From an uncultured Lachnospiraceae bacterium (GTDB taxonomy: Bacteria; Bacillota; Clostridia; Lachnospirales; Lachnospiraceae), in the NCBI GenBank assembly GCA_900318375.1, contig ONKG01000001.1:1-64000 (forward strand): a stretch of DNA of 64,000 bases, written 5' to 3'. Numbering within the stretch: position 1 is the stretch's first letter; each line of letters starts with the position of its first letter. Both the position numbers and the translations under genes were made by a program. A model generated the notes under the pieces. It did not search any database, had not been told where the DNA came from, and worked only from the letters and a program-made list of their open reading frames with translations. Positions 24,300-59,176 of this stretch are shown in pieces.

Positions 24300-24492
24300 A
24301 AGTTCAAAAGGTGGTCAAGCACCCCCGTCTCGTCAAGTTGCACAAACGCCTTGGGGACGCTCTCGCTCTACCCTCGCTGGAAGCGGTTCTGAGACCGCTA
24401 AAAACCAGCGGCCAAGTACCATCCGCTCGCCAAGGCCCTTCGGCTGTTTGTGCAACTTGACGAGACTCACTGCCTTTATGATACTTTTGACC
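24300..24492. repeat. Covarying inverted-repeat element, copy 1
   Basis: A perfect 20-bp inverted repeat (GTCTCGTCAAGTTGCACAAA at 24327-24346 and its complement at 24447-24466) encloses GCCTTGG/CCAAGGC and an inner hairpin CGCTGG-AGCGGT-ACCGCT-CCAGCG. The outer ends carry TCAAAAGG and CTTTTGA. Closely related to copy 2 at 58870-59082. It may be a miniature mobile element, a structured RNA, or both. Confidence 0.75.
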
Positions 24493-24562
24493 CTTACATC
24501 ATACCTTTAATCCCTGCAACAAACTGTGCTGTCATCAGTTTTCCAATAAAGAGGTAAACAGA

Positions 24563-25951
24563 ATGTCCACTCCTGTTTCCGCCGGAAAAAACGACCGGAA
24601 TATGGCCCTGTTTTATTCCGCCCCGATCCCTGTCGCCGTCATGACACTGGCGGTCCCCACGATCATCACACAGCTGATCAATATCATTTACAATTTTGCA
24701 GATACCTGGTATGTCGGCAGGACAGGAAACGCCGCCATGGTCGCCGCCCTTTCCGTCAGTATGCCTCTTTTTATTCTGCTGGCAGCCATTGCCAACCTCT
24801 TCGGCATAGGCGGTGCCAGTGTCATTTCCCGCGCCCTGGGACGAAAGAATCCCCGTTACGCCAGAAAAACCTTCACCTTCTGCTTTTACGGAGGGTTTGC
24901 TGCGGCAGTTGTCTACGCTGTGCTCATCATCCTCTTCCGCAGCCGTCTGATTCCGGTCATCGGCGGAGATGATTCCTCTTATCCATATATCTACGACTAT
25001 ATGTTCTGGACTCTGATCGTCGGCGCAGTCCCGACCGTCGGAAATGTCCTGTGCGGTCATCTGGTGCGCTCTGTCGGGGCTGCAAAAGAAGCCGGCTTCG
25101 GCATGTCCATGGGCGGTGTCCTCAATATCATACTGGATCCGCTTTTTATGTTTGTCATCCTGCCTCCCGGCAATGAAGTCACCGGTGCAGCCATCGCGAC
25201 CTGCCTGTCCAATACGGCCGCCCTCATTTATTTTCTGATCTATCTCTACAGACACAGAGACCACGAGGTGTTATCCCTCTCTCCTTCGGATTTCACCGTC
25301 GGAGAAGAGATTCCGGGGAATGTCATATCCATCGGGATTCCCGCGGCTCTCGCCACAAGTATGGCCATGCTTTCCAACATCGCCGCCAATTACCTGGTAA
25401 GTGATTACGGAAGCGCTGCTGTAGCAGGCATGGGCGTCGCCAAAAAGATCAACATGCTGGCCTTTAACACGACCATGGGCCTGACCCAGGGCGTCCTTCC
25501 CCTTCTGGGCTATAATTTCGGTGCCAGAAACTACGACCGTCTGAAAAAATCCATCATCTTCACAGCTGCAGCAGCCCTGGGATTCAACCTGATCTGCACA
25601 TTGTGCTTCCGCACCTTCGCTCCGACTCTGGTCGCCTTCTTTATCGCGGAGGAGGCATCGGTCAGCTTCGGAAGTGCCTTTCTGCGTGTCATTGCGCTGG
25701 CAACACCTCTTGCTTCCATTGTCTATCTGACCAACACGGTCTTCCAGGCAGCCGGCAGAAGGTTCAGTTCCTTCCTTCTCTCCATACTCCGCAAAGGCTG
25801 CATGGACATTCCCCTGATGTTCCTCTTCAAGTCCATGATCGGCATGTACGGTATTGTATGGGCGACTCCAACTGCCGAGATCGGTTCCATCCTGGTGGCA
25901 GTCTTCCTCATAAGGCTGATGGTCCGCGATATCAGGCGCGGTGATCTGTGA
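24563..25951 (+). CDS. MATE family efflux transporter
   Basis: 462 residues with about 12 hydrophobic segments. The N-terminal region (PIPVAVMTLAVPTIITQLIN, then YNFADTWYVGRTGNAA) and the repeat of the same layout around residue 240 (NVISIGIPAALATSMAMLSN) are typical of MATE antiporters, which export cationic compounds using Na+ or H+ gradients. It starts at ATG 24563 with AAGAGGT upstream. It is convergent with hemW; only a small GATAAC/GTTATC hairpin lies in the 66-bp gap. Confidence 0.9.
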   Translation: MSTPVSAGKNDRNMALFYSAPIPVAVMTLAVPTIITQLINIIYNFADTWYVGRTGNAAMVAALSVSMPLFILLAAIANLFGIGGASVISRALGRKNPRYARKTFTFCFYGGFAAAVVYAVLIILFRSRLIPVIGGDDSSYPYIYDYMFWTLIVGAVPTVGNVLCGHLVRSVGAAKEAGFGMSMGGVLNIILDPLFMFVILPPGNEVTGAAIATCLSNTAALIYFLIYLYRHRDHEVLSLSPSDFTVGEEIPGNVISIGIPAALATSMAMLSNIAANYLVSDYGSAAVAGMGVAKKINMLAFNTTMGLTQGVLPLLGYNFGARNYDRLKKSIIFTAAAALGFNLICTLCFRTFAPTLVAFFIAEEASVSFGSAFLRVIALATPLASIVYLTNTVFQAAGRRFSSFLLSILRKGCMDIPLMFLFKSMIGMYGIVWATPTAEIGSILVAVFLIRLMVRDIRRGDL

Positions 25952-26017
25952 GTGCAGTTGATAACAGCAGTTATCGGGAAAGATGTAGAAAGGACAAGAG
26001 CCTCAGGAGCCGGATCA

Positions 26018-27292
26018 TTACTGCAGATAATCCGCCATCACATAATTGCTGACGTCGGTCCCCCTCTCTGTCAGGCAAAAGCCCTCCGGTGTACGCTGCA
26101 GCAGCCCCTGTGCCAGATGTCTTCTGATCACATCCCCATACACTTCATCAAGGCTCTTTCCGAAGCGGGAGGCAAAATCCGACGTTTTTACACCTGCCGT
26201 CATCCTGAGCCCCAGGAACATGAACTCCTCCATCTTCTCCTGCTCAGTGAGGGAATGGATTTCCGTGCGGACCTTTCCGTATACTTGCTCGATTTCGGCC
26301 GGAATACCGGCCTTTTCCATCTCCACACTATAAGTCTCAAAATCCGTAATATTGGAAAAACGGGCTCCGTTCACATAAGACGCAGCTCCGATACCAAATC
26401 CCAGATAGGGATGTCCCGTCCAGTAGCCGCTGTTGTGGCGGCACTCCCTGCCTTTAAGAGCATAGTTGGAGATCTCATAGCGCCCATAGCCATGCTGGGC
26501 AAGGTATTCCCGGGTGTAGTGATACATCTTCCGGTCAGTCTCCTCATCCGGCAAGGGAGGCAGTTCTCCGGCCTCATAGAGCGCCGAAAAAGGCGTGCCC
26601 GGCTCGATGATCAGGCTGTAGGCGGAGATGTGCTCCGGCCTCCATTCCACTGCCTGCCGCAGGGAGTCCGCCCAGCTGTCAAAGGTCTGCCCGGGAAGGG
26701 CGCTCATAAGGTCGATATTAATATTGTCGAATCCGGCGGCGCGGGCAGTCTTAAAGGCCTCGAGGGCCTGTTCTGCTGTGTGGATCCTGCCCAGAAGATG
26801 CAGTTCTTCATCGTGCATGGACTGAACACCCATCGACAGACGATTGATCCCCGCCTCTTTAAAAGCACTGAGCTTTTCAAAGTCCGCGGTGCCGGGATTG
26901 GTCTCCAGACTGACCTCGGCATCCGGCAGGATTAAAAAGACTTCCCTCAGAGCGTCTATGATCCGTCCGATCTGGTCTGCAGACAGAACAGAGGGCGTGC
27001 CGCCTCCGAAAAATACTGTATCCACCGGCCGGCCTGCAGGGCAGTCTTTCTGCGTCTTTATCTCCCGGATCAGGGCTTTTACATACCTCTCCCGATCAAT
27101 ATCCGTCTGCGGTGCGGACAGAAAATCGCAGTACCGGCACTTGCGCAGACAAAAGGGTATATGGACATACAGGGAAATCAAATCAGTGCCGGAGAGAAAA
27201 TCTCCCCGGCACTTTGTGTTCTGCATATTATTTTCCGACGGACGAATCTCTATCACCTTTTCCCCCATCTTCTGTTCCGCTTCTGTCTTCAA
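26018..27292 (-). CDS. hemW: Radical SAM heme chaperone HemW
   Basis: Related to oxygen-independent coproporphyrinogen oxidase but, in this family, believed to insert heme. The radical SAM motif is CLRKCRYCDF, preceded by ISLYVHIPF, and DTVFFGGGTPSVL follows. The C-terminal HemW-type region (KMEEFMFLGLRMTAGV) is present. The family sequence starts at about residue 38; the first 37 residues (from TTG 27292) are atypical and include a 13-bp hairpin in the DNA at 27185-27213, so the true start may be later. The neighbouring upstream gene is lepA, a common arrangement in Firmicutes. Confidence 0.9.
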   Translation of the reverse strand: MKTEAEQKMGEKVIEIRPSENNMQNTKCRGDFLSGTDLISLYVHIPFCLRKCRYCDFLSAPQTDIDRERYVKALIREIKTQKDCPAGRPVDTVFFGGGTPSVLSADQIGRIIDALREVFLILPDAEVSLETNPGTADFEKLSAFKEAGINRLSMGVQSMHDEELHLLGRIHTAEQALEAFKTARAAGFDNINIDLMSALPGQTFDSWADSLRQAVEWRPEHISAYSLIIEPGTPFSALYEAGELPPLPDEETDRKMYHYTREYLAQHGYGRYEISNYALKGRECRHNSGYWTGHPYLGFGIGAASYVNGARFSNITDFETYSVEMEKAGIPAEIEQVYGKVRTEIHSLTEQEKMEEFMFLGLRMTAGVKTSDFASRFGKSLDEVYGDVIRRHLAQGLLQRTPEGFCLTERGTDVSNYVMADYLQ

Positions 27293-27444
27293 AATTATGC
27301 CTTCAAAAAATCCTTCCGGACTATATGGCGGATCTTCTCAGAAAAAGACAGAAATATTACTGAATACCCGATACCCGGAATAAAAACGCCCGGGAAAATA
27401 AATTGTGTACTCGAATGAATCCTCTCAGAAGACTTACTGCAGGC

Positions 27445-29262
27445 TTACTGTGTATCGAGCTTGAGGACATTCATAAAGGCTTCCTTGGGAATCTCTACGT
27501 TGCCGACAGTCTGCATGCGCTTCTTGCCTTCCTTCTGCTTCTCCAGCAGCTTTTTCTTTCGGGAAATATCGCCGCCATAGCACTTGGCAAGAACGTCCTT
27601 GCGCATCTGGCGTACTGTCTCGCGGGCGATGACACGTCCGCCGACAGCGGCCTGGATCGGGACGTCAAAGAGCTGGCGCGGGATCTCGTCCTTGAGCTTC
27701 TCGCACATCTTGCGGCCGCGTTCGTATGCCCCGTCCGCATGAACGATGAAGGAGAGGGCATCGACCGGCTCCTTGTTGACCAGGATATCCATCTTGACAA
27801 GTTTGGACTCCTCATAGCCCTTGAGCTCATAGTCAAAGGACGCATAGCCCCTGGACCTGGACTTGAGGGCATCAAAAAAGTCATAGATGATCTCGTTCAG
27901 AGGCAGCTCATACTTGAGGACCGCACGGGTAGTCTCGATATAATCCGTGCCCAGATATCTGCCGCGGCGCTCCTGGCAGAGCTGCATGATAGGGCCTATG
28001 AACTCGGTGGTGACCATGATCTCGGCACTCACGATCGGCTCTTCCATCCTGTCGATGGAGGAGGGCTCGGGAAGATTGGAGGGATTGGTCAGCTCGATCA
28101 TGGTGCCGTCTGTCTTATAGACCTTGTAGACAACGCCGGGCGCGGTGGAAATCAGGTCAAGATCATACTCACGCTCCAGGCGCTCCAGGATGACTTCCAT
28201 GTGCAGAAGTCCCAGGAAGCCGCAGCGGAAGCCGAATCCCAGGGCCAGAGATGTCTCAGGTTCGAAAAAGAGGGAGGCGTCATTGAGCTGGAGTTTTTCC
28301 AGGGCGTCCCGAAGATCCGGATAGCGCGGTGTCTCGGAAGGATACAGGCCGCAGTAGACCATGGGCTGGGCACCCTTATAGCCCGGAAGCGCTTCCTCAC
28401 AGGGACGGCTGTTCTCCGTCACCGTGTCACCCACACGGGCGTCCCTGATATTTTTGATGGAGGCAGTGAAGTATCCGACCATACCTGCAGAGAGCTCTTC
28501 GCAGGGGATGAACTGTCCGGGGCCGAAATAACCGACTTCGACCACTTCGGAGACCGCTCCGGTGGCCATCATCCTGACCTTCATACCACGGCGGATCCTG
28601 CCGTCGCGCAGTCGGCAGAAGACAATGACACCCCTGTAGGAATCGTAGAGGGAATCAAAGATCAGTGCCTTGAGGGGGGCATCCGGATCTCCGTCCGGTG
28701 CCGGAATATTGGTGATGACTGCCTCCAGGACATCATCTATGCCCAGGCCCTGTTTTGCTGAGATCAGGGGAGCCTCCGACGCGTCAAGTCCGATGACATC
28801 CTCGATCTCCTCTCTCACGACCTCCGGCTGGGCAGAGGGCAGGTCGATCTTGTTGATGACCGGGAAAACATCCAGGTTGTGCTCCAGAGCCAGATAGACA
28901 TTGGCCAGAGTCTGCGCCTGGATTCCCTGTGTAGCGTCAACCACCAGGATCGCGCCGTCACAGGCCGCCAGGGAACGGCTGACCTCATAGTTGAAGTCAA
29001 CATGTCCGGGGGTGTCGATCAGATTGAAAATATACTCCTGGCCGTCCTTAGCATTATAGACCAGACGAACTGCCTGGGATTTGATCGTAATACCGCGCTC
29101 ACGCTCCAGTTCCATGTTGTCGAGGACCTGATCCTGCATTTCCCGGCTGGTGAGCAGCCCGGTCTTCTCGATCATGCGGTCCGCAAGCGTGGACTTGCCG
29201 TGGTCAATATGCGCGACAATACAGAAATTTCTGATTTTATCCTGGGTAATTTCTTTTTGCAT
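27445..29262 (-). CDS. lepA: Elongation factor 4 (LepA GTPase)
   Basis: 605 residues, normal family length. GTPase motifs: AHIDHGKST (G1), DTPGHVDF (G3) and NKIDLPSA (G4). The C-terminal domain includes the conserved [33 protein letters not shown] segment. It binds ribosomes and promotes back-translocation or late steps of assembly. The ribosome site is AAAGGTAAGTGA before ATG. The gene precedes hemW with a 152-bp gap. Confidence 0.97.
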
Positions 29263-29348
29263 TCACTTACCTTTCAATCTGTCAGTACGGCAGTCTTTCA
29301 AGGAGTCCCTTCGACACTGCTGCCCGACATGCCGGAATCTGCGTCAAA

Positions 29349-29384
29349 CCTCCGGCAGACAATAGCGGGTATGTCTGCCGGAGG
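29349..29384. terminator. Strong hairpin downstream of the solute-binding protein gene
   Basis: CCTCCGGCAGACA (29349-29361) and TGTCTGCCGGAGG (29372-29384) are a perfect 13-bp inverted repeat. A T run is found on the plus side at 29393-29400 and only TTT on the minus side. It separates the ABC operon from lepA and probably stops or slows transcription leaving the operon. A second palindrome, TCGTGCATGCACGA, lies at 29432-29445. Confidence 0.6.
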
Positions 29385-29471
29385 CACAGTGTTGTTTTTT
29401 GTATAAGCGCCCGCCGGGGCCTCCCGACCGCTCGTGCATGCACGACGCTCTGTCGGCTTTAACCGGCTGCT

Positions 29472-32099
29472 TTATTCATTTTCTTTGAGGTAGACCTGGA
29501 TGCGGCTCTGGATGATATCGGAGACTTCCGCTGTCGTTTTCTGGCCGGCAAAGTAGGCGCCTGCTTCTTCCATGATGATGTTGAGGACTTCCTGTTCACT
29601 GTTTACAGAGAAGGTCAGATTCTCAAGGATCTTTTCCATTTCCTTCAGGTCATCTTCGCTGAATTCGGGCAGGGAATCGAGTCCATAGGCATCTGTGCTC
29701 TCTTCAATCTCGAGTTCTTCCGGCTCGGCAATAACTTCCTCGCCGGTCATAGCCTCTGCTGCTTTGGCATCAGCCTCGAATTCCTTGACGTATTCCTCGT
29801 ACTCCTCGTGGGTTCCGTCGAAGTCTTTTTCGGGAACGGGCTTGTTGGTATAGTCTTCAGACACTTTCTCGGTGGCTTCCATATCATCGGTAGCTTCAAT
29901 GACATCATCTCCGGAGAATCCCTCTGCAGCATCTCCCGAAGCATCTTCCTCGGAAATTTCCAGATCCAGTCCTTTCATGTATTCTTCGTATTCCTCCTGC
30001 TGCTCTTTCAGGCTCTCGAGGACAGTCTGGCCTTGTTTGTCGATCGATGCTTTGCTGAGCGGGAGGCAGCTTTCCAGGCTTCCCTGATAATCGGACAAGA
30101 GGAATCTGCGGACGAAATCCCAGCAGCCGTCAGCATTGGGAGAACTGCTGCTGATTCCAAGTTCAAAGCAGGGGGCAATCGAAGGACCCTTGTTTGTCTT
30201 GGAGGGGAAACCGGTAACAGTCATATTGATATCACCATACATGCGTCTGGTCATATAATAGTAATCAAAAGGAGTATTGATGTACTGAACGCCCAGCAGT
30301 GCCTTATCGGCCAGATACTGTGTTTCGTAATCCATGTACGCGTCATCGCCGATTGCAGCGGGGTATTTATTGGCAAACTCAAGCAGTTCCTGGAAATCTT
30401 CATTGTTGAAGCTGCAGGTATGCGATTCCATATCAATGAACTGATCGCCGGAGAACTCAATTGCAGTAGACAGAACTGTTTCCCTGTCCATGATGCCCAG
30501 CACACCGGTATCGTCAAGTCCCATGCCCTTTGCGATCTCTCTTGCCTTTGCGAGTGTCAGATCCTTGCCGTCACCGATATACTTGGCCTTGCCGGCAATG
30601 CCTGTCACGGTAAAGCCGGGAACGACCACATACATCTTGCCATCCGTCTTAAAGGCGTCCACAACGTTCTGGAGGAAATCCCCTTTGTCAATATCCTTGT
30701 CTGCTTCATAATAATCTGTCAGATCCATCAGCATGCCTTTGGAAATATAATTATTTACAGGCATGGAATCGCTCAGGACCAGGATATCCGGAATATCCCC
30801 TGAGATAATATCTGTATTCATCGTGGAGATGCCGGAAGGATTATTATATTCATCCTCAGCCATGTCATACTGGCTGTAATCACGGATAATAATTCTGAAA
30901 TCAGTGTTTTCCTTGTTGAACTTAATGATCTCACTGCGGACGTCGTAGGAAATATAATAGCCGCCGATCGTGATCTCTTTTCTGTCCTTTACATCTTCAG
31001 GAGCTATGGGTTCCATCAGATAGGTCTCAAGGACCACCTGAGAACCGTATGCCTGCATCTCGAATCTGCCGTCTCCCAGTTCGATCAGACTCGTCACGCC
31101 TTCGACATCCAGATCGGAATTGACGAAGTTGACAACCACATCCATTTTATCCGATCCGAGCTTAACACCGTAAATACCGTCCTGGGATGACAGATACAGA
31201 TCATAATTGCTGCCGGGGAAAATGTTGGCTTCGATCAGAGAAGAGGGCAGCGTAAGGCTGTCCGCAAACTCTTTTTTGCCGGCGTCATATTTGAGGATCT
31301 TTGACGCGGACCCGGTGTCATCCTTCATCAGTACAGTACCGTCAGGCAGGGCATAGAGCAGACCGGCGGCATCTTCAGGTTTGATCTGGCAGAGAGATTC
31401 GACAAAGGATCCGTCCTTCGTCGAATACTTGTCGACACCCTCTGTGGAAACAACCAGGATTCCGTCGTCTGTAGGGACAATGGATTCAATATAAAAATAC
31501 ATACTGTCCTGAGGTTCTTTGACATCCACCAGCCATTTCTGTTTGCCGTCCGCTGTGAGACAGCAGATCTGATAGGACACGGCAGCGTCTTCACTGAATC
31601 CCATAGGAATTTCTCCCTCGGCATCCAGTTCGTTATCAAGGGCATAGTCAAGCGCTTCGGAATTTGCCGTGTTGGCAAGTCCGACATAGTAGACGCCGTC
31701 CTTAAAAGCGGAGCAGGTCACATCCGTAACTTCTGAATCTTCAGGCTTAAAAACAGTTTTCTTCAGGTCCGATCCATCCTCTTTGAAGTTCACAAGTTCA
31801 TAGGCATTGAGACCGTCACCTTCATAGCTGTAATTAAAGCCGTAAAAAATGCCGTCTTCATAACGCAGAATCTGAAGTCCTTCTGTGTTGAAATCGTCTC
31901 CCAGAGAGATAAGATCCGATTTTACGACACCGTCCTTACTGGTCACTTCCGGCATGGCGGAAGACACAGAACCCTTGCCTTCGCTCCCGGAGCCGCCGGA
32001 TTCACTTTTTCCTCCTCCGCAGCCGACTGCAGTCATTGCCAGGATCATACAAAGCACGGCCGCAGCAAAACGTCTGAATTCTTTTTTCAATCTGATCAT
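29472..32099 (-). CDS. Very long ABC-type extracellular solute-binding lipoprotein
   Basis: 875 residues. The signal peptide ends in the lipobox TAVGC. Residues about 60-365 contain repeated beta-strand segments (YEDGIFYGFNYSYEG, AFKDGVYYVGLAN, LPDGTVLMKDDTG) suggestive of a propeller-like domain. From about residue 370 (ITIGGYYISYDVRSEIIKFN, then DIPDILVLSDSMPVNNYIS) it follows the family 1 solute-binding pattern. The C-terminal 150 residues are acidic. Sugar-type binding proteins are usually about 430 residues, so this one is doubled by the N-terminal domain. It is the last gene of the operon with the two permeases, HlyD-like and MacB-like proteins. Confidence 0.8.
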   Translation of the reverse strand: MIRLKKEFRRFAAAVLCMILAMTAVGCGGGKSESGGSGSEGKGSVSSAMPEVTSKDGVVKSDLISLGDDFNTEGLQILRYEDGIFYGFNYSYEGDGLNAYELVNFKEDGSDLKKTVFKPEDSEVTDVTCSAFKDGVYYVGLANTANSEALDYALDNELDAEGEIPMGFSEDAAVSYQICCLTADGKQKWLVDVKEPQDSMYFYIESIVPTDDGILVVSTEGVDKYSTKDGSFVESLCQIKPEDAAGLLYALPDGTVLMKDDTGSASKILKYDAGKKEFADSLTLPSSLIEANIFPGSNYDLYLSSQDGIYGVKLGSDKMDVVVNFVNSDLDVEGVTSLIELGDGRFEMQAYGSQVVLETYLMEPIAPEDVKDRKEITIGGYYISYDVRSEIIKFNKENTDFRIIIRDYSQYDMAEDEYNNPSGISTMNTDIISGDIPDILVLSDSMPVNNYISKGMLMDLTDYYEADKDIDKGDFLQNVVDAFKTDGKMYVVVPGFTVTGIAGKAKYIGDGKDLTLAKAREIAKGMGLDDTGVLGIMDRETVLSTAIEFSGDQFIDMESHTCSFNNEDFQELLEFANKYPAAIGDDAYMDYETQYLADKALLGVQYINTPFDYYYMTRRMYGDINMTVTGFPSKTNKGPSIAPCFELGISSSSPNADGCWDFVRRFLLSDYQGSLESCLPLSKASIDKQGQTVLESLKEQQEEYEEYMKGLDLEISEEDASGDAAEGFSGDDVIEATDDMEATEKVSEDYTNKPVPEKDFDGTHEEYEEYVKEFEADAKAAEAMTGEEVIAEPEELEIEESTDAYGLDSLPEFSEDDLKEMEKILENLTFSVNSEQEVLNIIMEEAGAYFAGQKTTAEVSDIIQSRIQVYLKENE

Positions 32100-32304
32100 A
32101 TTTCATTCCTTCTCTTTTGATTCGGTCGCGCTTCCCCACAGCGCCACACATGTATATGTGCCGAACGACAGGTTATCCCCCGGCCGGCAGCCATAAATGA
32201 CGGAATACTTTCCATCTCTCCTTTTGATTTTTATTTATCTTTCCATTGAATAACGATCCGGCAGAATATCGAACCATCAAATAATAGATTTGTCTCCCGG
32301 ATGA

Positions 32305-34164: not shown

Positions 34165-34212
34165 GTGTGCCTCTTTTCCGTACTCTTTTCGTTTCTCTGA
34201 TTATGCACTGCA

Positions 34213-34238
34213 GTTCACGCCCTGTCGAGGGCGTGAAC
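34213..34238. other. Intercistronic hairpin between HlyD-like and MacB-like genes
   Basis: GTTCACGCCCT, a 4-nt loop GTCG and AGGGCGTGAAC form a perfect 11-bp stem. There is no T run. It may modulate mRNA stability between the two cistrons. Confidence 0.6.
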
Positions 34239-34250
34239 CTGTAACCTGCC

Positions 34251-46895: not shown

Positions 46896-46920
46896 GGATA
46901 AAACCTTTCCTTTCTTTAAT

Positions 46921-47923: not shown

Positions 47924-48193
47924 TCAGTCCTCGTCCTGTCCGGAATCCGACTCCTCAAGAGCCCGCCCCCGTATTGTCTCCGGAAGCAGGGCAGACAGGA
48001 CGATCCTGTCATTTTCCATAACGATCACCGACTTTGTCTTCCTGCCCTGGGTCGCATCGATCGTGCGGCCGTCGCTTTTGGCGTTCGAGACCAGACGGCG
48101 GACAGGCGCCGAATCCGGGCTGACGATCGCTATGATCTTTCCTGCATTTACTATATTGCCGAATCCGACATGTATCAGCTTATTCAATGTCAT
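47924..48193 (-). CDS. remA: RemA-type regulator (DUF370)
   Basis: 89 residues from ATG 48193 (GTG 48202 is an alternative with AGGAAA upstream). LIHVGFGNIVNAGKIIAIVS and IDATQGRKTKSVIVMEN are diagnostic. In Bacillus RemA is a DNA-binding activator of matrix genes that forms ring assemblies; the role here is inferred. The last 15 residues are acidic. Confidence 0.9.
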   Translation of the reverse strand: MTLNKLIHVGFGNIVNAGKIIAIVSPDSAPVRRLVSNAKSDGRTIDATQGRKTKSVIVMENDRIVLSALLPETIRGRALEESDSGQDED

Positions 48194-48368
48194 AATCTGC
48201 ACCAGAGAGTTTCCTGCTTATCGGCAGCCCCGTCCTTTCAGATACACCGCACACCGAAACGGCAGCGCCATGCTGTCACAGGATGTCCGGGCTGTCACGC
48301 GGAACAGGCATCCGGAGTGAAATAACAGTGTCGGTCCACCGGGCTCTGGAAGATGCTCGCACAGGCTG

Positions 48369-49247: not shown

Positions 49248-49607
49248 GAGCTGTCCTCCTCAAGGGTCTGTAAAATCAGTTTCCATTATAACATTATACT
49301 TTCAACCGTCAAGAAAGAAGTGTATACTTGTGGGTATGCCTGAACCGGCCCTGTCCGTGCTCTGCCCGGTGCTTTCCCGGAACTTTCCGACGCTTTCCGC
49401 GCGCTTTCCCGATGAGTGAAGACATCCCGCGGCCGGGTGCAGGTATGATTGTAACGGATACCTCCCTGTGTTTATAAGTAAGTGTTCATTAATAAATGTT
49501 CATAAACAAGTGTTCATAAATCAGTGTTGATAAGTAACAGACACTGATGTTTATAAACCGCTTATCTTCCACAAGTTCACAGGGAAAGAATATAAGGAGA
49601 AATCTTC
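49248..49607. other. 360-bp divergent intergenic region
   Basis: Between yicC and rqcH. Besides the yicC promoter it contains, at 49470-49556, several degenerate copies of AGTGTTCATAAA separated by short AT-rich spacers. No gene is evident. Confidence 0.55.
49285..49312 (-). promoter_or_regulatory. Promoter of the yicC operon
   Basis: On the minus strand TTGACG and a perfect TATAAT are separated by 16 nt. Initiation would be about 30 nt upstream of the yicC ATG. Confidence 0.7.
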
Positions 49608-51419: not shown

Positions 51420-51470
51420 ACAATCCAGTGTCGGCAGGTACTTCTATTCCGTAAAATCCGTAAAATTTTT

Positions 51471-51497
51471 GAGTCTCGCAAGCGAGACTCTTTTTTT
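51471..51497 (+). terminator. rqcH terminator
   Basis: GAGTCTCGC, a short AA loop and GCGAGACTC are followed by seven T residues, 52 bp past the stop. The same stem sequence recurs in element A at 38817-38838. Confidence 0.9.
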
Positions 51498-51586
51498 ATG
51501 ACACGGCCTGTGCCATGTATATTTTCCGCCTCAGGGCAGACACCGGCCGGTCGGGGCCATAGAGCGGCAGGGCCGCCTGGATCCTC

Positions 51587-53293
51587 TTACAGCCAGTGAA
51601 GCTTTTTGAGAAGGCGCACGATGGCACCGCCCTTGGGAAGCCCCAGGATATCCTCCTGTGTAAAGCTCCCGAGACGGATCAGAAGGAAAAAGTAGACCGG
51701 CACTGCAACAGCAATCGACGGCATTGTGGCAATGAAGTTGGCAAAGTACTGTCCGCAGAAATGAGAGGCAAGGAAAAAGACTCCCCTGTAGACAAGGAAA
51801 ACGGCTGCGCCCATCACCAGGGCGCTGAAGATGGGTTTCCAGTAAACCCTTACCGCATCAAAGCGAAGTCCCAGATAGCGCCGCAGGAAGAGCTCATTGA
51901 GAGCAAAGATGATCGCCGCGTACAGAACGCTGACAAAGACCATGGCGTAGATCCCCCAGTCTGTAAAACGCAGGAAAAAGGCCAGAGCCGCAGTCTGTAT
52001 GATCAGGGCGACACTTGCGCTGACGATCGGCATATTCATCTTTCCGATCGCCTGCAGGATGGCATTGGTGATGGTTCCGACCGACAAAAAGATGACCGTC
52101 ACGGACTGCAGTGTGAGCAGAACCGAGGCAAGTTCCAGGGTGTCCCACTGCGGAAACATCAGCATAGTCACAGGGCGGGCCAGTACCAGAAGGCCGACCG
52201 CACAGGGTATGGAAATGATCAGAGCCATCCTTGATGCATTGATAGAACGGCGCCGCGTTTCCCTGATATCCCCTGAGGCATAGGCTGTCGCAATATTGGG
52301 AATAATAGCAGCCGAAACCGCAGTAGCGACCGAGATCGGAATGTTGGTGATGACTACCGCCTTATTGGAAAACAGACCGAACACTGTGGTGACCGCCGGC
52401 TCGGAAAGTCCCTTGACGTCGATCAGCATATTCAGATAGATCATCTGGTCCAGTGTCGTCGTCAGATTCAGGATAAAGCTGCTGGCGATAAAGGGCGTGA
52501 TCACCAGGATCGTACTCTTCATGATCCTGGAATAAGACTCGGTAAGTCCGCGATCAGCAGATATTCTTTGGAAAAAGCCTTTCCGATGCCTGAAATACGC
52601 AATTGCCATAAATACGAGAGCTGTGGCTACACCGCATCCCGTACCCAGAGCACTGCCCATGGCGCCGCGCACCGCGCGTTCCGTCTGATTCGCATGGATC
52701 GAAGCCGTGTGGATCAAAAGAGAAGCCGCACCGATACTGACCGCCGCATTGGCGATCTGCTCCAGGATCTGCGACACCGAAGTCTGCACCATGGATTGAT
52801 TTGCCTGGAAATAGCCGCGCACTGCGCCCAGAATTCCAAACAGAAAAATGGTCGGCGCAAATACTCTCAGGACCGGAACCGCATTGTGCTTGACCAGAAC
52901 CCCTGCCCCGAAATACAGCAGAAAGCTGCCCGCCGCGCCGACGATCAGGGAATAGATCAGCGCGCAGTGAAATGCCCTCTGTGCATTTTTATATTGACCG
53001 ACCGCAAGCTTTGTCGACATCTGCCTCGAAATCGCCGCCGGCAGGGAGTTGGAGGACAGGATCAGAACGATCATATAAATATTGTAGGCCGCTCCGTAAT
53101 AGCCGTTGCCTTCATCTCCAATGATCGCGGTCAGAGGTGCCCTGTACAAAAGTCCTATGATACGGACAACTATAGTCGCGATCGCGAGGATTCCCGCCTG
53201 GACCGCGATACTGCTTCCTGCAGACTTCTCCTTTACCGCCTTACTGCCGGCCTCACGCATATCTTCTCTTCTATCTCCTGTCATATCACCCAT
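51587..53293 (-). CDS. SpoVB/MurJ-like lipid flippase (MOP superfamily)
   Basis: 568 residues with about 14 transmembrane segments. The N-terminal segment (AIATIVVRIIGLLYRAPLTA, then GNGYYGAAYNIYMIVLILSS) is typical of the SpoVB/YtgP polysaccharide-exporter group that moves lipid-linked cell-wall precursors. An exact assignment among SpoVB, YtgP and MurJ cannot be made here. Start ATG 53293 with AGGAAAG upstream. Confidence 0.85.
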   Translation of the reverse strand: MGDMTGDRREDMREAGSKAVKEKSAGSSIAVQAGILAIATIVVRIIGLLYRAPLTAIIGDEGNGYYGAAYNIYMIVLILSSNSLPAAISRQMSTKLAVGQYKNAQRAFHCALIYSLIVGAAGSFLLYFGAGVLVKHNAVPVLRVFAPTIFLFGILGAVRGYFQANQSMVQTSVSQILEQIANAAVSIGAASLLIHTASIHANQTERAVRGAMGSALGTGCGVATALVFMAIAYFRHRKGFFQRISADRGLTESYSRIMKSTILVITPFIASSFILNLTTTLDQMIYLNMLIDVKGLSEPAVTTVFGLFSNKAVVITNIPISVATAVSAAIIPNIATAYASGDIRETRRRSINASRMALIISIPCAVGLLVLARPVTMLMFPQWDTLELASVLLTLQSVTVIFLSVGTITNAILQAIGKMNMPIVSASVALIIQTAALAFFLRFTDWGIYAMVFVSVLYAAIIFALNELFLRRYLGLRFDAVRVYWKPIFSALVMGAAVFLVYRGVFFLASHFCGQYFANFIATMPSIAVAVPVYFFLLIRLGSFTQEDILGLPKGGAIVRLLKKLHWL

Positions 53294-53413
53294 GCCATCT
53301 GCTTTCCTGCAATCTGTTTTAAACCTCTTATGTATCAGTCCTGCGTTCCTTTTTTCAGTCTATGTCCGGATAAATCCATACCACTATATCACAAGTCAGA
53401 AAAAAATCCACAG

Positions 53414-53451
53414 AAAAAACTGCGGCAGGACACGAAAGATGCCCTGCCGCA
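53414..53451 (-). terminator. glgA terminator
   Basis: TGCGGCAGG pairs with CCTGCCGCA around a 13-nt loop and is followed on the minus strand by GTTTTTTC. It lies between glgA and the flippase gene. Confidence 0.85.
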
Positions 53452-53561
53452 AAAGTCTTATTCACTTTTTGACTGTCATGCTTTTGTACACAGTATGCCG
53501 GAACACATCAATGCAAAGGCACTCTCATCGGGAAATTCCTATGGACGATTTCTCATTGCCA

Positions 53562-55010
53562 TCAGCCGATCAGCCAGTCATACATCTCCTGATACTTGGC
53601 AGCAGACTGTGCCCAGGAGAAATCAGCCTTCATGGCGCGCTCGACCATCTTATTCCACTCGAGACGCTTGTCATAGTAGACCTGCTCCGCATAGCGGATG
53701 GAATGCATCATCTCATGCGCATTGTAGTTCGCGAATGTGAAGCCTGTGCCGGTTCCTTCGAACTCGTTGTAAGGCTCGACAGTATCCTTCAGACCGCCGG
53801 TCTCGCGGACGATCGGAAGTGTGCCGTAACGCAGGGACATCAGCTGGCTGAGTCCGCAGGGCTCGAACAGGGAAGGCATCAGGAAAGCATCTGAGGAAGC
53901 ATAGATCTTATGAGACAGCTCATCCGAATAGTAGATGTTGGCGGAAATCTTGTCATTGTACTTCCAGTCGAAGTAACGGAACATATTCTCATAGCGCTCT
54001 TCACCGGTGCCCAGAACGACCATCTGGATCGCGTCAAGAGAAAGGATCTCTTCAAGCACATAAGCGATCAGATCGAAGCCCTTCTGGTCTGTCAGACGGG
54101 AGACAATACCGATCATGAAGCACTTTTCATCGACCTTGAGTCCCAGTTCCTTCTGCAGCGCAAGTTTGTTTTTGACTTTCATCTTGCGGAAGTTGTCAAC
54201 CGTATAAGGCTGAGGGATCTTCTTGTCATTATCCGGGGAGAAATCGGTGTAGTCGATACCGTTGATGATACCGCGCAGGTCATTGCTCCTTGCGTTCATC
54301 AGTCCGTCAAGGCCCTCGCCGTAGAACTGGGTCTTGATCTCCTCCGCATAGGTCGGGGAAACAGTTGTGATCGCATCCGCATATACCAGACCGCCTTTGA
54401 GAAGGTTGGCGTCCTTGTAAGCCTCAAGCTTGTCGGGTGTGAAATAGTAGCCGGAAAGGCCTGTGATATCCTCGACATCGCGCACATTCCACTTGCCCTG
54501 GAACTTGAGGTTATGGATCGTCATTACGGACTTGATACCCTGGAAGAACTCGTTTCCTGCGAAACGCTCTTTCAGATATACGGGAACAAGACCGGTCTGC
54601 CAGTCGTGGCAGTGGATCAGGTCGGGGCGGAAATCAACGGTGGGAAGTGCGGACAGCACAGCCTTTGAGAAGAACGAAAAACGGGTAATCTCGAAAAGCG
54701 GGTCATCCGTATAAGGCTTGTCACTGGTGAAGAATCCCTCATTATCGATAAAGTAGAAAGTAATTCCTTCTACTTCAGCCTTCAGCACACCAACATACTC
54801 GCTCTTCCAGTGGAAGTCCATGTAGAAGTGTGTGACATACTCCATCTTGTCTTTCATCTCCTGCTTCATGCAGGAATACTTGGGCATGATCACCCTGACG
54901 TCATAATATTCCTTGTCCAGTTCCTTCGGAAGAGAACCGACAACGTCCGCCAGTCCGCCAGTCTTAATGAAAGGAACGCCCTCAGATGCCACAAAAAGAA
55001 TCTTCTTCAT
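53562..55010 (-). CDS. glgA: Glycogen synthase (ADP-glucose type)
   Basis: 482 residues from ATG 55010 (AGGGGGT upstream). GT5 family, GT-B fold, elongating alpha-1,4-glucan. Motifs: MKKILFVASEGVPFIKTGGLADV with the K-T-G-G-L donor site, FFQGIKSVMTIHNLKFQG, and the C-terminal MPSLFEPCGLSQLMSLRYG and ETGGLKDTVEPY. No other glycogen gene is adjacent. Confidence 0.95.
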   Translation of the reverse strand: MKKILFVASEGVPFIKTGGLADVVGSLPKELDKEYYDVRVIMPKYSCMKQEMKDKMEYVTHFYMDFHWKSEYVGVLKAEVEGITFYFIDNEGFFTSDKPYTDDPLFEITRFSFFSKAVLSALPTVDFRPDLIHCHDWQTGLVPVYLKERFAGNEFFQGIKSVMTIHNLKFQGKWNVRDVEDITGLSGYYFTPDKLEAYKDANLLKGGLVYADAITTVSPTYAEEIKTQFYGEGLDGLMNARSNDLRGIINGIDYTDFSPDNDKKIPQPYTVDNFRKMKVKNKLALQKELGLKVDEKCFMIGIVSRLTDQKGFDLIAYVLEEILSLDAIQMVVLGTGEERYENMFRYFDWKYNDKISANIYYSDELSHKIYASSDAFLMPSLFEPCGLSQLMSLRYGTLPIVRETGGLKDTVEPYNEFEGTGTGFTFANYNAHEMMHSIRYAEQVYYDKRLEWNKMVERAMKADFSWAQSAAKYQEMYDWLIG

Positions 55011-55463
55011 ATTCAATGACCCCCTGTTACTGTAATGAGATTTGGGTATGATACCAACAGTTACTTACGAAAAATGCTCCCGCGAAGCTGCCATGCGGTT
55101 GTACATGCCCACACAGGCTGAACGCCGGAACAGTGTAGAGCTGCTGCATTCCCGCAAAGACAGCGGCAGATCAATCGAATGTGCCGCAATCTTGTATAAA
55201 TGCCGGAAACGGGGATATTTCCCGAAAATATCAATCTTTATTCATTATAACCCATTCTTTTGCATTTTGCTCAAAATTTTTATAAAAATAAAGGAATTTT
55301 TGGTATAAGTGATAAGCGCGCAGGCCAGTATGAAAGGCCGGGCGGTTTTCAATGCCCGCCTGCGAGACCTGCTGCCCTGCGCAGCATTGGTTCACATCTG
55401 CGGGACATACGTAAATGTATCCTCTTGCGGCCTGCATCGCAAAGATCCCGCCAGACACCGGAC
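55011..55463. other. 453-bp intergenic region between the recombinase-like gene and glgA
   Basis: It contains a possible glgA promoter (TTGAGC at 55269-55274, TATAAT at 55244-55249, minus strand, 19-nt spacing, hence weak). GC-rich stem-forming sequence lies at 55320-55460. A frame of 75 codons across it has no ribosome site and is not called. Confidence 0.5.
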
Positions 55464-56048
55464 TCAGGTCAGGTCCGCCCCCTTTTGTGCAAGGAAATAC
55501 TTGTGCATGGCTGCACTGCGGATTCCCAGAAGCGACTGTACTGTCGAAGGATCCGCCCCTCTTCGCAGCAGAGATACCGCCAATGCTGTCCTTAGATCCT
55601 CCGGTGATACGGGCTGCCTGATCCCGGCTGCAAGGGCATGTTTTTTAACAAGTTTCCAGACGGCCTGTCTGGTGATCATTTTTCCGCTCCTTCCGGGAAA
55701 CAGAAGGTCAGCAGGGCTTTCAATCTCCCTGCGGACATCGTACAGATATTTCATCAGACTCTCCCGTGTTTTCTTTCCGAAAGGAATCATTCTCTCAGGA
55801 CTGGCGCAACTCCCGATACTCTCAGGATTCTCAGGGAGCAGCACACAGGAAATCTGAAGGTCTATGTTTTCCACACGCAGCGGGACAAGCTCCTGCACCT
55901 TGAGACCCGCCCCGCCCAGAAGCTCCAGGATAGCCCTGTCCCTGATGCCCGCACGGGTCTGGGGATCCGGCGCATCGAGGATCCGGTCCAGCTCTTCCCG
56001 GGTCAGCGCTCTCTGTTCATTTTTCCGGTTTTCCCGGATCTCATCCAT
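55464..56048 (-). CDS. Degenerate tyrosine recombinase-like protein (catalytic domain only)
   Basis: 194 residues from ATG 56048, with GGAGGGG 6 nt upstream. It aligns with the C-terminal domain of XerC/XerD recombinases: LTREELDRILD, IRDRAILELLGGAGLKVQEL, EDLRTALAVSLLRRGADPSTVQ, then MHKYFLA. However the first catalytic Arg is replaced by Lys (GLKVQEL), the His of HxLR is Glu (EDLR), and the His of LGH is replaced (LGIRS); only the second Arg and Tyr remain. The N-terminal core-binding domain is absent. Probably not an active recombinase. Located between glgA and rny beside a 25-bp tandem repeat. Confidence 0.75.
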   Translation of the reverse strand: MDEIRENRKNEQRALTREELDRILDAPDPQTRAGIRDRAILELLGGAGLKVQELVPLRVENIDLQISCVLLPENPESIGSCASPERMIPFGKKTRESLMKYLYDVRREIESPADLLFPGRSGKMITRQAVWKLVKKHALAAGIRQPVSPEDLRTALAVSLLRRGADPSTVQSLLGIRSAAMHKYFLAQKGADLT

Positions 56049-56080
56049 CCCCGGCCCCTCCATTTTGTGACAAGTTATGC

Positions 56081-56180
56081 TGTGACATAAACTGATATGA
56101 AAAGCTGTGACATAAACTGATATGAAAAGCTGTGACATAAACTGATATGAAAAGCTGTGACATAAACTGATATGAAAAGT
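56081..56180. repeat. 25-bp tandem repeat, four copies
   Basis: TGTGACATAAACTGATATGA plus AAAGC is repeated exactly at 56081-56105, 56106-56130, 56131-56155 and 56156-56180 (last base differs). The repeat lies upstream of the recombinase-like gene and runs into the rny terminator. Confidence 0.95.
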
Positions 56181-56212
56181 GCTGCGGAATCCTACCGGGC
56201 CTCCGCAGCACT
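56178..56212 (-). terminator. rny terminator
   Basis: AGTGCTGCGGA pairs with TCCGCAGCACT and is followed by TTTTC on the minus strand and TATACTTTTC on the plus strand. It lies 41 bp after the rny stop. Confidence 0.8.
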
Positions 56213-56252
56213 ATACTTTTCAAATCTTCAATAATCTAATAAATATATGATA

Positions 56253-57803
56253 TTATTTCGCATAATCCGTAACTCTGGACTCACGGATTAAGTTTACTTT
56301 GATCTGACCGGGATATTCCATATCCGCTTCAATCTTCTTGGAAATATCTCGCGCCAGCAGTACCATATCAGCATCGCTGATCTGCTCAGGAACTACCATT
56401 ACGCGAACTTCTCTGCCTGCCTGAATGGCATAAGAATTACTGACCCCTTTAAAACTGTTGGTGATTTCTTCTAACTGTTTCAATCTCGTAGTATATGCTT
56501 CGAGAGTTTCTCTCCTTGCACCCGGACGGGCTGCGGAGATCGTGTCTGCCGCCTGCACAATGCATGCGATCAGACTTGCCGGTTCAACATCACCGTGGTG
56601 CGCTTCCACGGAGTTGATCACTGTCTGCGACTCTTTATATTTTCTGCAGAGCTCGGCGCCCAGCTGTACATGAGATCCTTCCATCTCATGATCGACAGCC
56701 TTGCCGATATCATGCAGAAGTCCGGCGCGCTTCGCAAGACGGACATCAAGTCCAAGCTCGCTTGCCAGAAGACCGGATAGCTGTGCAACCTCGATGGAAT
56801 GCTTGAGTGCGTTCTGTCCGTAACTTGTGCGGAAACGCATCTTGCCCAGAAGACGGACAAGCTCGGGATGGATCCCATGTACGCCGACTTCCAGCGTAGC
56901 TGCTTCTCCCTCTTCTTTAATCCTGGCTTCCACCTCACGCTGCGCCTTACCGACCATCTCCTCGATTCTGGCAGGATGAATTCTGCCGTCGACGATCAGC
57001 TTCTCCAACGCGACACGTGCGACTTCCCTGCGAATCGGATCAAATGCCGATATGACAACCGCTTCCGGTGTATCATCGATAATCAAGTCGACGCCTGTCA
57101 TCGTCTCAAGAGTACGAATATTGCGCCCTTCACGTCCGATGATTCTGCCCTTCATTTCGTCTCCGGGCAGCTGGACAACAGAAATCGTCGCCTCGGAAAC
57201 ATGATCTGCCGCACAGCGCTGTATGGCATTGACCACAAATTCCTTGGCCCGCTTGTCTGCTTCTTCCTTGGCTTCCGACTCGATCTCTTTGATCATTCTG
57301 GCGGAATCCAGTTTCACTTCATCTTCAACAATCTTTAAAAGGTGTTCTTTTGCCTGTTCGGAGGTTAGGCCTGAAATACGCTCGAGTTCCTGTATCCGCT
57401 GCTCATTAAGCATTGAAACTTCTTTCTGAAGTTTCTGCAGATTTTCTTCCTTGGCAGAAAGACTCTGTTCCCTGCGCTCCAGCTGCTCGACCTTATTGTC
57501 GATCTGCTCTTCCTTCTGCTGAATCCTGCGCTCATTTTTCTGAACTTCGTTTCTTCTGTTCTGGATTTCCTTTTCGAGTTCGTTCTTGGATTTGAACGTC
57601 TCCTCACGGATCTCCAGCATAGCTTCACGCTTTTTGGATTCTGCTTCACGAAGGGCTTCGTCGATAATAGCTCTCGCCCTTGCTTCTGCGCTGTCTACCT
57701 TGATCGCATCCTGCTTCCTGTGGTTGCTGGAAGTGACATACCAGGTAAGGGGAACTGCTGCTGCCAGAGTAAGAATCACTGCAATAATGATTCCTATAGC
57801 CAT
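56253..57803 (-). CDS. rny: Ribonuclease Y
   Basis: 516 residues. A membrane-anchoring N-terminal helix ([20 protein letters not shown]), a coiled coil (about 40-190), a KH domain ([16 protein letters not shown]) and an HD domain ([17 protein letters not shown]). It initiates mRNA decay in many Firmicutes. Normal length; all motifs intact. The recA-recX-rny order is a familiar Firmicute arrangement. Confidence 0.97.
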
Positions 57804-58094
57804 ACAGGAGCACCTCCATATTCAATTGAACTGTTTGCTTTATTGTATAGAATACATATAAAAATACACCCGATTTCCAGACAACAACGGAATATTAACT
57901 GCATTCTAACGAACAAACTTACAACAAATTGATTCTAATCTTAATAAGTGCACATGTCAAGTCATTCCTGAACGGGCGTTTTGGACAAAATCCTGTTATT
58001 TTTTGCTTCCCCATGCTTTTCCGGCGGCAATTTGCACCAAAAGCCGTTTTTTCAGAGCCGTCCGACAAGGGAAACCGGATCTTTCCGCGCGGCG

Positions 58095-58766
58095 TCAGTA
58101 ATCATCTCTGCAGCCTGTCATGCGCCGGATCAGATCAGCAGGATATCCCTTTCTGTGCAGAAAAGCCATGGTCTTCTGCCGCTCTTCATAGCCGGCTTCA
58201 CCGGGATCAAATCCCCTTTTCTTTAAAAGACGCATCACCTGCTGACGCTGCGCGTCCTCCAGATCTTCCTCTTCGGCAAACTCGGCAAACACTTCTTCAA
58301 TATCTGTTTCGGAGATTCCTTTTCCTGCCAGATCTCTGATGATCCGGAGTCTGCTTCTGTCCTGTATATGGCTTCTGATATAGCTGCGGGCAAAGCGTCT
58401 GTCATCCAGATAGCCGGCTTTCTGCAGCTTTCCGACAGCCTCTTCCACAATGGAGTCGGGAAATCCTGCCTCGATGAGCTTTTCCCGGAGACGGCATTCG
58501 GAATAATCTCTGGTCCCCAGAAGCGTACCGCACCGCTGCATACAAGCCGACCGCAGAGACTGCATGATCTGTGTATAGGTATCATCAGACAGTTCCTTCG
58601 CCTCTGCAAAGCCCAGACGGGCGGCTTTCAAAGACGGGAAAAGAAAGCTCTCTCCGTCATCCAGCGTCACTCTTATCCTTCCCCTGCCGGAACAGGATGG
58701 GCCGCTCTCCCCGCTCCTGCGGCGTGTCTTTGCCGCGATCTGTTCGATAGAAAGAATTACGTGCAA
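58095..58766 (-). CDS. recX: Regulatory protein RecX
   Basis: 223 residues from TTG 58766 with GGGGGA upstream. Three-helix RecX repeats: ECRLREKLIEAGFPDSIVEE, RRFARSYIRSHIQDRSRLRI, and QVMRLLKKRGFDPGEAG. It modulates RecA filaments. Separated from recA by 410 bp that hold copy 2 of the inverted-repeat element. Confidence 0.9.
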   Translation of the reverse strand: MHVILSIEQIAAKTRRRSGESGPSCSGRGRIRVTLDDGESFLFPSLKAARLGFAEAKELSDDTYTQIMQSLRSACMQRCGTLLGTRDYSECRLREKLIEAGFPDSIVEEAVGKLQKAGYLDDRRFARSYIRSHIQDRSRLRIIRDLAGKGISETDIEEVFAEFAEEEDLEDAQRQQVMRLLKKRGFDPGEAGYEERQKTMAFLHRKGYPADLIRRMTGCRDDY

Positions 58767-59176
58767 AATCTTCCCCCTGTGGTCAAACCGGGCCGGATCG
58801 GCACCATGCAGTCAGTCTGCACAGTCCCTTGCCGGCCCGGGTAATAATATTCCTACAGTAATGATGTTGAGGTCAAAAGGTGGTTAAGGGAACACCGTCT
58901 CGTCAAGCTGCACAAACGCCTTGGGCACGCTCTCGCTCTACCCTCGCCGGCAGCGGTACTGAGGCCGCTAAAAACCAGCGGCCAAGTACCTGGCACGCAG
59001 CATCTCCTTCGGAACTGCGCAAGGCCCTTCGGCTGTTTGTGCAGCTTGACGAGACTCAGAGCCATTGGATACCTTTTGACCTTTACATCACAGTAATTGT
59101 ATCTAAATATATCTATAATAATTGCAATAAGGATTAAAAATGTAATAAGGATTTAAACGAAAATGATAATCAGGAC
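58767..59176. other. 410-bp intergenic region between recA and recX
   Basis: 58870-59082 is copy 2 of the covarying inverted-repeat element. The remainder is AT-rich (59083-59176) or featureless (58767-58869). No gene seen. Confidence 0.65.
58870..59082. repeat. Covarying inverted-repeat element, copy 2
   Basis: The ends AGGTCAAAAGGT (58870-58881) and ACCTTTTGACCT (59071-59082) are perfect 12-bp inverted repeats. Inside, GTCTCGTCAAGCTGCACAAA (58897-58916) pairs with 59036-59055 across 20 bp. Relative to copy 1, one position changes T to C on one arm and A to G on the other, keeping the pair. The core (CTCTCGCTCTACCCTCG, then CTAAAAACCAGCGGCCAAG) is conserved. This copy has about 19 extra bases near 58991-59019. 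Confidence 0.8.

What the first reader, a model, noticed from the sequence alone, without database searches (positions are those of the whole stretch)
24300..59082. Two copies of a long inverted-repeat element with compensatory base change
Copy 1 (24300-24492) and copy 2 (58870-59082) share a 20-bp outer stem, inner stems and a conserved core. One pair in the outer stem is T-A in copy 1 and C-G in copy 2, so pairing is kept. Copy 2 also has perfect 12-bp terminal inverted repeats and splits recA from recX, which are usually close. This fits either a miniature inverted-repeat transposable element or a mobile structured RNA.
Basis: partly seen in the sequence, partly recalled or inferred. Interest (0 to 1): 0.75.

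Follow-up and report, generated by a model that had tools for sequence, protein, structure and literature searches.

The report
Shared structured-RNA module in jumping hairpins
The two copies belong to a small jumping DNA element of about 40 copies in this bacterium, and its middle is a strand-specific fold, likely a structured RNA, that recurs in 158 of 397 sampled genomes of the same bacterial family, reaches no Rfam family's own threshold and also sits inside jumping elements with quite different ends.

Summary
Copy 1 (24294-24500) and copy 2 (58863-59089) are two of about 40 copies of a MITE in this genome. Its ends are shared with an IS1182-like insertion sequence, and 26 of 33 copies with both ends have target duplications of 6-8 bp. 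The three relatives aligned lack it between recX and recA. Mobility is supported.

The larger result is the middle of the element. On the minus strand of both copies it is a roughly 130-nt fold: a long outer stem (P1) of any sequence, a conserved core, and a 2-bp mini-hairpin whose loop is GNRA in 102 of 102 distinct copies. It recurs in 25 of 62 genomes of the genus, 158 of 397 of the family, and one genome outside it. It lies inside MITEs with unrelated ends in other genera, and elsewhere as copies inherited at the same site.

Pairing is kept with strand polarity (G-T 47, A-C 16 in a strand-neutral count) and by compensatory changes at one locus between sister species. This favours a structured RNA over a mere hairpin. 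Its function is unknown; a cis role on read-through transcripts near gene ends is my inference.

The varied internal deletions of many copies are assembly artefacts.

The parts
24294..24500 (-). MITE copy 1, 207 bp, degenerate ends; strand given is that of the RNA-like fold
   Evidence: end motifs with 2 and 1 mismatches; 207-bp element
24332..24461 (-). structured core module of copy 1 (covariance-model match)
   Evidence: R1 139.5 bits, E 2.5e-28; R2 117.5 bits
24327..24347 (.). P1 arm, copy 1
   Evidence: sequence
24446..24466 (.). P1 partner arm, copy 1
   Evidence: sequence
24359..24366 (-). GC-GAGA-GC mini-hairpin of copy 1
   Evidence: sequence; GNRA loop in the family
24287..24293 (.). 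imperfect target duplication, left (ATACTTT)
24501..24508 (.). imperfect target duplication, right (ATACCTTT)
58863..59089 (-). MITE copy 2, 227 bp, between recX and recA; strand given is that of the RNA-like fold
   Evidence: exact end motifs on both sides, element
58902..59050 (-). structured core module of copy 2, long variant
   Evidence: R1 101.3 bits, E 1.7e-19
58897..58917 (.). P1 arm, copy 2
   Evidence: sequence
59035..59055 (.). P1 partner arm, copy 2
   Evidence: sequence
58929..58936 (-). GC-GAGA-GC mini-hairpin of copy 2
   Evidence: sequence
58855..58862 (.). target duplication ACAGTAAT, left
59090..59097 (.). target duplication ACAGTAAT, right
58095..58766 (-). recX (neighbour)
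   Evidence: RecX_HTH1-3
59177..60235 (-). recA (neighbour)
   Evidence: RecA 478 bits
24563..25951 (+). MatE transporter gene (neighbour of copy 1)
   Evidence: MatE 131.5 bits

Best explanation
It is a miniature transposon (MITE), likely moved by the transposase of an IS1182-like insertion sequence that shares its ends, and it carries in its middle a strand-specific structured module, likely an RNA, that recurs across what is taken to be the family Lachnospiraceae. Shown: many copies, shared ends, target duplications, absence at the recX-recA site in three relatives, a conserved and covarying fold with a fixed strand, and the same fold inside MITEs with unrelated ends and at inherited sites. 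Inferred: the transposase acts in trans. Also inferred: when a neighbouring gene's transcript runs through the element, the minus strand of these two copies folds into a long P1 stem, a P2-P4 arm and a GNRA mini-hairpin that docks on the arm, and the folded RNA (probably bound by a protein, or cleaving or protecting the transcript) changes the fate of that transcript near gene ends. MITEs that carry it would then be better tolerated, which would explain why unrelated MITEs hold it. The function step is the least certain one.
For: Mobility: 71 aligned pieces in own genome; 26 of 33 copies with both ends have target duplications of 6-8 bp (25 of them 7-8 bp) against a shuffled mean of 1.8, maximum 6; absent between recX and recA in G083, G011 and G008. 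Partner: L070 carries nearly the same terminal motif (1 and 2 mismatches) and a single 536-aa frame with DUF772 and DDE_Tnp_1 domains, nearest NCBIfam model IS1182. Module: 14 cores, 95.4% of cells paired, 71 both-side changes against 17.9 shuffled; 102 distinct copies, 95.2% paired, 1597 both-side changes against 447 shuffled, slid versions 31-41% paired. Strand: G-T 47 against A-C 16 (other 37) in P1 of 92 copies by a strand-neutral count, 10 further copies without an ungapped stem dropped; GNRA loop in 102 of 102, the inner pair of its stem 93 C-G, 7 U-A, 2 A-U. Same-locus compensation between sister species, L289 against L291; median core identity over 11 ortholog pairs 0.98, against 0.71 and 0.92 for the 5' and 3' flanks. 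Other MITEs: G031 and G549. Range. No Rfam match at gathering score in the window. Position: 120 copies with both neighbours (16 at locus edges dropped), 106 with both genes within 400 nt.
Against: No expression data. No promoter or terminator excess at the module. No strand preference relative to neighbouring genes (39 ++ against 42 --), which a purely cis RNA role would not predict. The transposase scores 136 bits, below the NCBIfam IS1182 cut-off of 270, and that IS copy shares only about 17 terminal bp with the MITE; it holds no module. The alignments A2 and A3 were fitted to a model, so the counts lean towards it. Young copies in this genome show 1 G-T and 2 A-C mismatches (18 copies), too few to show polarity. 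One sub-threshold Rfam hit with a low E-value overlaps a module (MIR1858, a miRNA hairpin model, 46 bits of 137 needed, E 4.4e-5). I ran no test of function.
Confidence: 0.6

Rival explanations
1. The module is a folded single-stranded DNA site, like REP palindromes or integron attC sites, recognised by a recombinase or transposase; the strand polarity reflects ssDNA recognition, not RNA.
For: From memory: G-T pairs are also better tolerated than A-C in DNA, and the GC-GNRA-GC hairpin is also very stable as DNA. Close pairs of copies are mostly divergent (11 divergent, 1 convergent, 2 same; 7, 0, 3; the G111 and G264 pairs are one orthologous site and occur in both counts), as in REP dimers. 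A polar boundary A[P1]G in 46 of 126 copies against 5 for the mirror image, CA before P1 in 41 and GTC after it in 20. No strand bias relative to genes.
Against: Loop position 3 is a purine in 102 of 102, the RNA GNRA rule. No replication-strand bias by local GC skew (39 of 83 positive). Y1 transposase genes are absent in 3 of 10 genomes that carry copies, including G755 with 16 copies; the nearest listed Y1 gene lies 3.5 kb from a copy, in G549.
Confidence: 0.2
2. An independently transcribed, multi-copy trans-acting small RNA gene that has been picked up by MITEs.
For: Vertical inheritance at the same site: 11 of 15 copies of G111 lie at the matching site in G264, core more conserved than flanks. 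Divergent pairs could share a promoter region.
Against: No excess of -35/-10 matches or T-runs beside the module relative to the mirrored flank in 118 copies (promoter score 9 or more: 10 against 11; T-runs 21 against 24).
Confidence: 0.12
3. An ordinary MITE whose long hairpin is a neutral by-product; paired changes arise by hairpin-templated repair, without selection on a fold.
For: Quasipalindrome correction can make compensatory changes (general knowledge). Young copies show no polarity, on three mismatches.
Against: Strand asymmetry 47 to 16, GNRA loop and conserved unpaired positions, persistence at inherited sites with the core more conserved than the flanks, and recurrence in unrelated MITEs.
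Confidence: 0.08

Closest known systems
MITEs mobilised in trans by IS transposases
   Same: Short, no gene, terminal inverted repeats shared with a complete IS, target duplications, many copies
   Different: Carries a conserved structured module that is not in the IS copy seen and that recurs in MITEs with other ends
bcr1 repeats of the Bacillus cereus group
   Same: From memory: about 155-bp repeat, mobile, with a conserved secondary structure. Here seen only as a search listing
   Different: Not compared by sequence; the host group differs, and I know of no recurrence of bcr1 in several unrelated MITEs
REP palindromes with GTAG or CGTC tags (PMC3733652, abstract and passages seen)
   Same: Dispersed, intergenic hairpins with a tag at one end, often in inverted pairs; some may act as RNA
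   Different: REPs are 20-40 bp; CGTC-REP stems are 8-9 bp with a tag at one end and a mostly CCA tail at the other, in the opposite order from here as I read it. Here about 130 nt, P1 median 22 bp, branched fold, no RAYT link
ERIC, Correia/NEMIS and similar structured bacterial repeats (recalled)
   Same: Intergenic elements transcribed with neighbouring genes that can act on mRNA
   Different: No family-wide core with a hypervariable outer stem and a GNRA mini-hairpin is known to me

Membership tests
MITE | Terminal inverted repeats | tested here: met
   Exact 17-bp end motifs at both ends of copy 2; 60 exact ends in the genome
MITE | Short target site duplication | tested here: met
   19 of 33 copies 7 bp, 6 of 33 8 bp, 1 of 33 6 bp; shuffled mean 1.8 at 6 bp or more
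MITE | No coding capacity, high copy number | tested here: met
   Copies that look complete are 207-251 bp, too short for a transposase gene; about 40 copies
MITE | Mobilised by a transposase of an IS with the same ends | not testable with these tools
   Candidate IS L070 found; transposition not assayed
IS1182 family (the partner IS) | Transposase reaches the NCBIfam IS1182 equivalog cut-off | tested here: not met
   136 bits against a cut-off of 270, but the best of four models; hence 'IS1182-like' only
Any Rfam family | Match at gathering score at the module | tested here: not met
   0 matches in the window. At E up to 5 (8 loci) and up to 1 (10 loci) two sub-threshold hits overlap a module: MIR1858 (46 bits of 137, E 4.4e-5, L043) and STnc420 (23.8 bits of 70, E 1.3, L036); the rest lie outside it
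REP / CGTC-REP | 20-40 bp palindrome with a terminal CGTC or GTAG tag | tested here: not met
   About 130-nt branched fold; GTC directly 3' of P1 in 20 of 126 copies, at the opposite end from the described tag as I read
REP / CGTC-REP | Linked RAYT (Y1) transposase | tested here: not met
   No Y1 gene in 3 of 10 genomes with copies, nearest one 3.5 kb from a copy; CGTC-REPs are themselves said to lack a dedicated transposase
bcr1 | Sequence or model similarity to bcr1 | not tested
   No bcr1 sequence was fetched

The most novel reading that the evidence does not exclude
A new class of mobile structured RNA: one fold, with a freely changing outer stem and a GNRA mini-hairpin, spread over a whole bacterial family and repeatedly taken up by unrelated MITEs because the RNA itself (a ribozyme or a scaffold for a host protein) makes insertions tolerable or useful.
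Probability: 0.35. Interest if true: 0.88.

Novelty: new variant of a known kind. Interest (0 to 1): 0.74.

Why it matters
Structured RNA classes with strong covariation and a family-wide spread often turn out to have a definite biochemical role (riboswitch, ribozyme, RNP scaffold). This one is unusual because it is dispersed, indifferent to the direction of neighbouring genes, and found inside MITEs with unrelated ends. It makes a concrete question testable: can a structured RNA be cargo that decides which miniature transposons survive? It also gives ready material: copies that differ in P1 but not in core, a sister-species pair with compensatory changes, and genomes with 1 to 41 copies.

Tried and rejected
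Internal deletions as biology: most short copies of the MITE seemed to have their own internal deletion. I rejected this: of 28 deletion copies of G000 and G008 counted, 23 keep 88-98 nt on the contig-left side whatever the orientation of the element, so these are assembly joins. Nine of the 37 non-full-length rows were left out of that count (one duplication, two with N stretches, two read in the wrong orientation, four very short).

Cis-regulatory leader: several copies lie just before a ribosome-binding site, but counts gave no strand preference relative to genes.

Own promoter or terminator: no excess against the mirrored flank.

Y1/RAYT mobilisation: not supported. Viral spread: 5 pattern matches in viral contigs, one of which the model accepts.

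Empty-site search for module copies outside MITEs: at the ilvC-side locus G264 keeps a short hairpin that resembles the outer P1 arms and G306 has nothing. This fits loss or gain and did not settle the ends. The G755/G465 comparison gave only distant flanks.

Literature: searches (0, 0, 1, 3, 0, 0 papers listed) named nothing like it; the listings and the paper PMC3733652 (abstract and passages) gave analogues only. That is a limited search of open-access papers.

The first consensus structure was replaced by a hand structure because three of the 14 sequences, copy 1 of the window among them, contradicted one of its pairs; the hand structure was chosen on the same 14 sequences that one search counts.

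A scan of G549 ends overcounted overlapping matches and is used only to show the terminal repeat; its duplication figures are not used.
Full report
Observation. With the ends defined by the other copies, copy 1 is 24294-24500 and copy 2 is 58863-59089. Copy 2 lies between recX and recA.

The MITE. A search of the window's own genome (193 contigs, 3.9 Mb, 82% complete) gives 71 aligned pieces and 60 exact end motifs. Of 33 copies with both ends in the loci I held, 26 have a target duplication of 6 bp or more (19 of 7 bp, 6 of 8 bp, 1 of 6 bp), against 1.8 on average when the right flanks are shuffled. In the same genome an IS at G000:C93 ends in nearly the same motif and encodes one 536-aa frame with DUF772 and DDE_Tnp_1 domains; the best NCBIfam model is IS1182, below its cut-off. 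That this transposase moves the MITE is an inference. In G083 and G011 the recX and recA matches lie 76-77 bp apart, against 447-449 in the window; in G008 the interval is 235 bp shorter, equal to the element plus one duplication, with a diverged spacer. Over 19 relatives' recA loci model R2 finds one copy, upstream of recA in G010 (not every locus reaches recX). The first DNA search found the element in 8 of 61 genomes (own included), all of one genus. By contig name and length, genome G008 matches the rumen MAG RUG12566, labelled uncultured Lachnospiraceae, so I take family f1 to be Lachnospiraceae.

A warning on lengths. Most copies look internally deleted, many differently. Mapped to a full copy, 23 of 28 keep 88-98 nt on the contig-left side irrespective of the element's orientation, while the right side varies; nine other short rows were left out. 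These are joins made by the assembler. The two copies in the window have full length.

The module. Weak matches in relatives showed that the middle recurs with entirely different outer stems. On one strand, called B here (the minus strand of both window copies), the fold is: outer stem P1 (median 22 bp in 115 copies), a short asymmetric loop, an arm P2-P3-P4 with the conserved sequence GYCGGUACUU ... GUACCGYURC, and a mini-hairpin GC-GNRA-GC. For 14 cores a hand structure of 44 pairs has 95.4% of cells paired and 71 both-side changes against 17.9 in shuffles. A covariance model found it in 25 of 62 genomes of the genus. A second model, built from 73 hits, found it in 158 of 397 family genomes, 139 of 334 genera. 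In a class sample all 7 matching genomes of 291 belong to the family. In a phylum sample 5 of 398 match, four in the family and one, G1109, in another. These are lower bounds: few candidates per genome were scored. In ten genomes, mostly well assembled and chosen because they had hits, copies number 1 to 41, 126 in all. At Rfam's own thresholds the window has no match; over 18 loci two sub-threshold hits overlap a module, MIR1858 at 46 of 137 bits (E 4.4e-5) and STnc420 at E 1.3, and I take both for chance likeness to an inverted repeat.

RNA or DNA? Over 102 distinct copies the structure holds in 95.2% of cells, against 31-41% for slid versions. The alignment was fitted to the model, so I also counted P1 mismatches by an ungapped, strand-neutral method: G-T 47, A-C 16, other 37 in 92 copies, 10 more dropped for lack of an ungapped stem. 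A neutral palindrome would give about equal G-T and A-C. The mini-hairpin loop is GNRA in all 102 copies; its inner pair varies (93 C-G, 7 U-A, 2 A-U). In the sister species G111 and G264, 11 of 15 copies of G111 lie at the matching site. At one of them (L289 against L291) a pair in P3, a pair in P4 and both pairs of the mini-hairpin have changed with pairing kept and the loop still GNRA; at two others the P1 arms have diverged strongly (identity 0.52-0.72) and still pair. Median identity over the 11 pairs is 0.98 for the core, 0.92 and 0.88 for the P1 arms, 0.92 for the 3' flank and 0.71 for the 5' flank. So copies seem to be kept under selection where they sit. DNA hairpins also tolerate G-T, so a single-stranded DNA role is not excluded; the purine at loop position 3 in every copy and the absence of a replication-strand bias (39 of 83) speak for RNA.

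Not tied to one MITE. In G031, eight of the nine copies scanned show both ends GGGGCTGTCGCATTATA. In G549 at least 12 of the 22 copies printed have ends like GGGGCTGTAAAAAATCAAAA. G023 copies have a further outer repeat. Other copies in G549, and those of G755, show none of these full ends and have unrelated P1 stems. A polar boundary, A before P1 and G after it, often CA[P1]GTC, occurs in 46 of 126 copies against 5 for the mirror image.

Context. Of 120 copies with both neighbours (16 dropped at locus edges), 106 have both genes within 400 nt; B is in the sense of both genes in 39, antisense to both in 42, between convergent genes in 25 and divergent genes in 14. The 3' end of B is nearer to a gene than the 5' end in 86 of 119, weaker without paired copies (54 of 83). 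Close copies are mostly arranged divergently (11 of 14, 7 of 10, with one orthologous site in both) and, where printed, differ from each other. There is no promoter or terminator excess. Y1 transposases do not go with it.

Reading. I conclude that the finding is a MITE carrying a structured module, likely RNA, of a class that reaches no Rfam family's threshold. What the RNA does is open. My preferred mechanism, a cis effect of the folded RNA on read-through transcripts near gene ends that makes insertions tolerable, explains its presence inside MITEs with unrelated ends, but it is weakened by the lack of strand preference. The most useful next facts are transcript data and a cleavage or pull-down assay.

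Noticed in passing
L008-L030, L056-L073 (copies of the MITE in G000 and G008): Apparent internal deletions mostly keep about 91-97 nt on the contig-left side: an assembly artefact that would mislead any count of deletion derivatives.
   Followed up: yes
L096, L099, L100, L118/L119, L127, L168, L175, L182, L214-L217: Pairs of copies of the module lie close together in divergent orientation, far more often than chance in G755 (5 close pairs, 4 of them divergent, against about 0.12 expected within 1.5 kb); the reason is unknown.
   Followed up: partly
L121:1240-1401 (-): A TwoAYGGAY RNA (RF01731, 85 bits) lies about 100 nt from a copy of the module.
   Followed up: no
L079, L080, L081, L083: Very short copies (63-66 bp) with the MITE ends but no module, one with a 6-bp target duplication; either assembly products or MITEs without cargo.
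   Followed up: no
L147, L148, L151, L152 (G031), L233 (G549): The flanks of some of these MITEs are complementary (such as AAAC ... GTTT) instead of duplicated, as if inserted into terminator-like palindromes.
   Followed up: no
G264:C15:143500-143530 (L308): At the site where G111 has a module before an ilvC-like gene (named from recalled sequence), the sister species keeps only a short hairpin GGGCGGAAATTACGCCC resembling the outer P1 arms.
   Followed up: partly
L050 (G017:C26): A copy whose tip stem has grown to about 30 bp while the core is recognisable.
   Followed up: no
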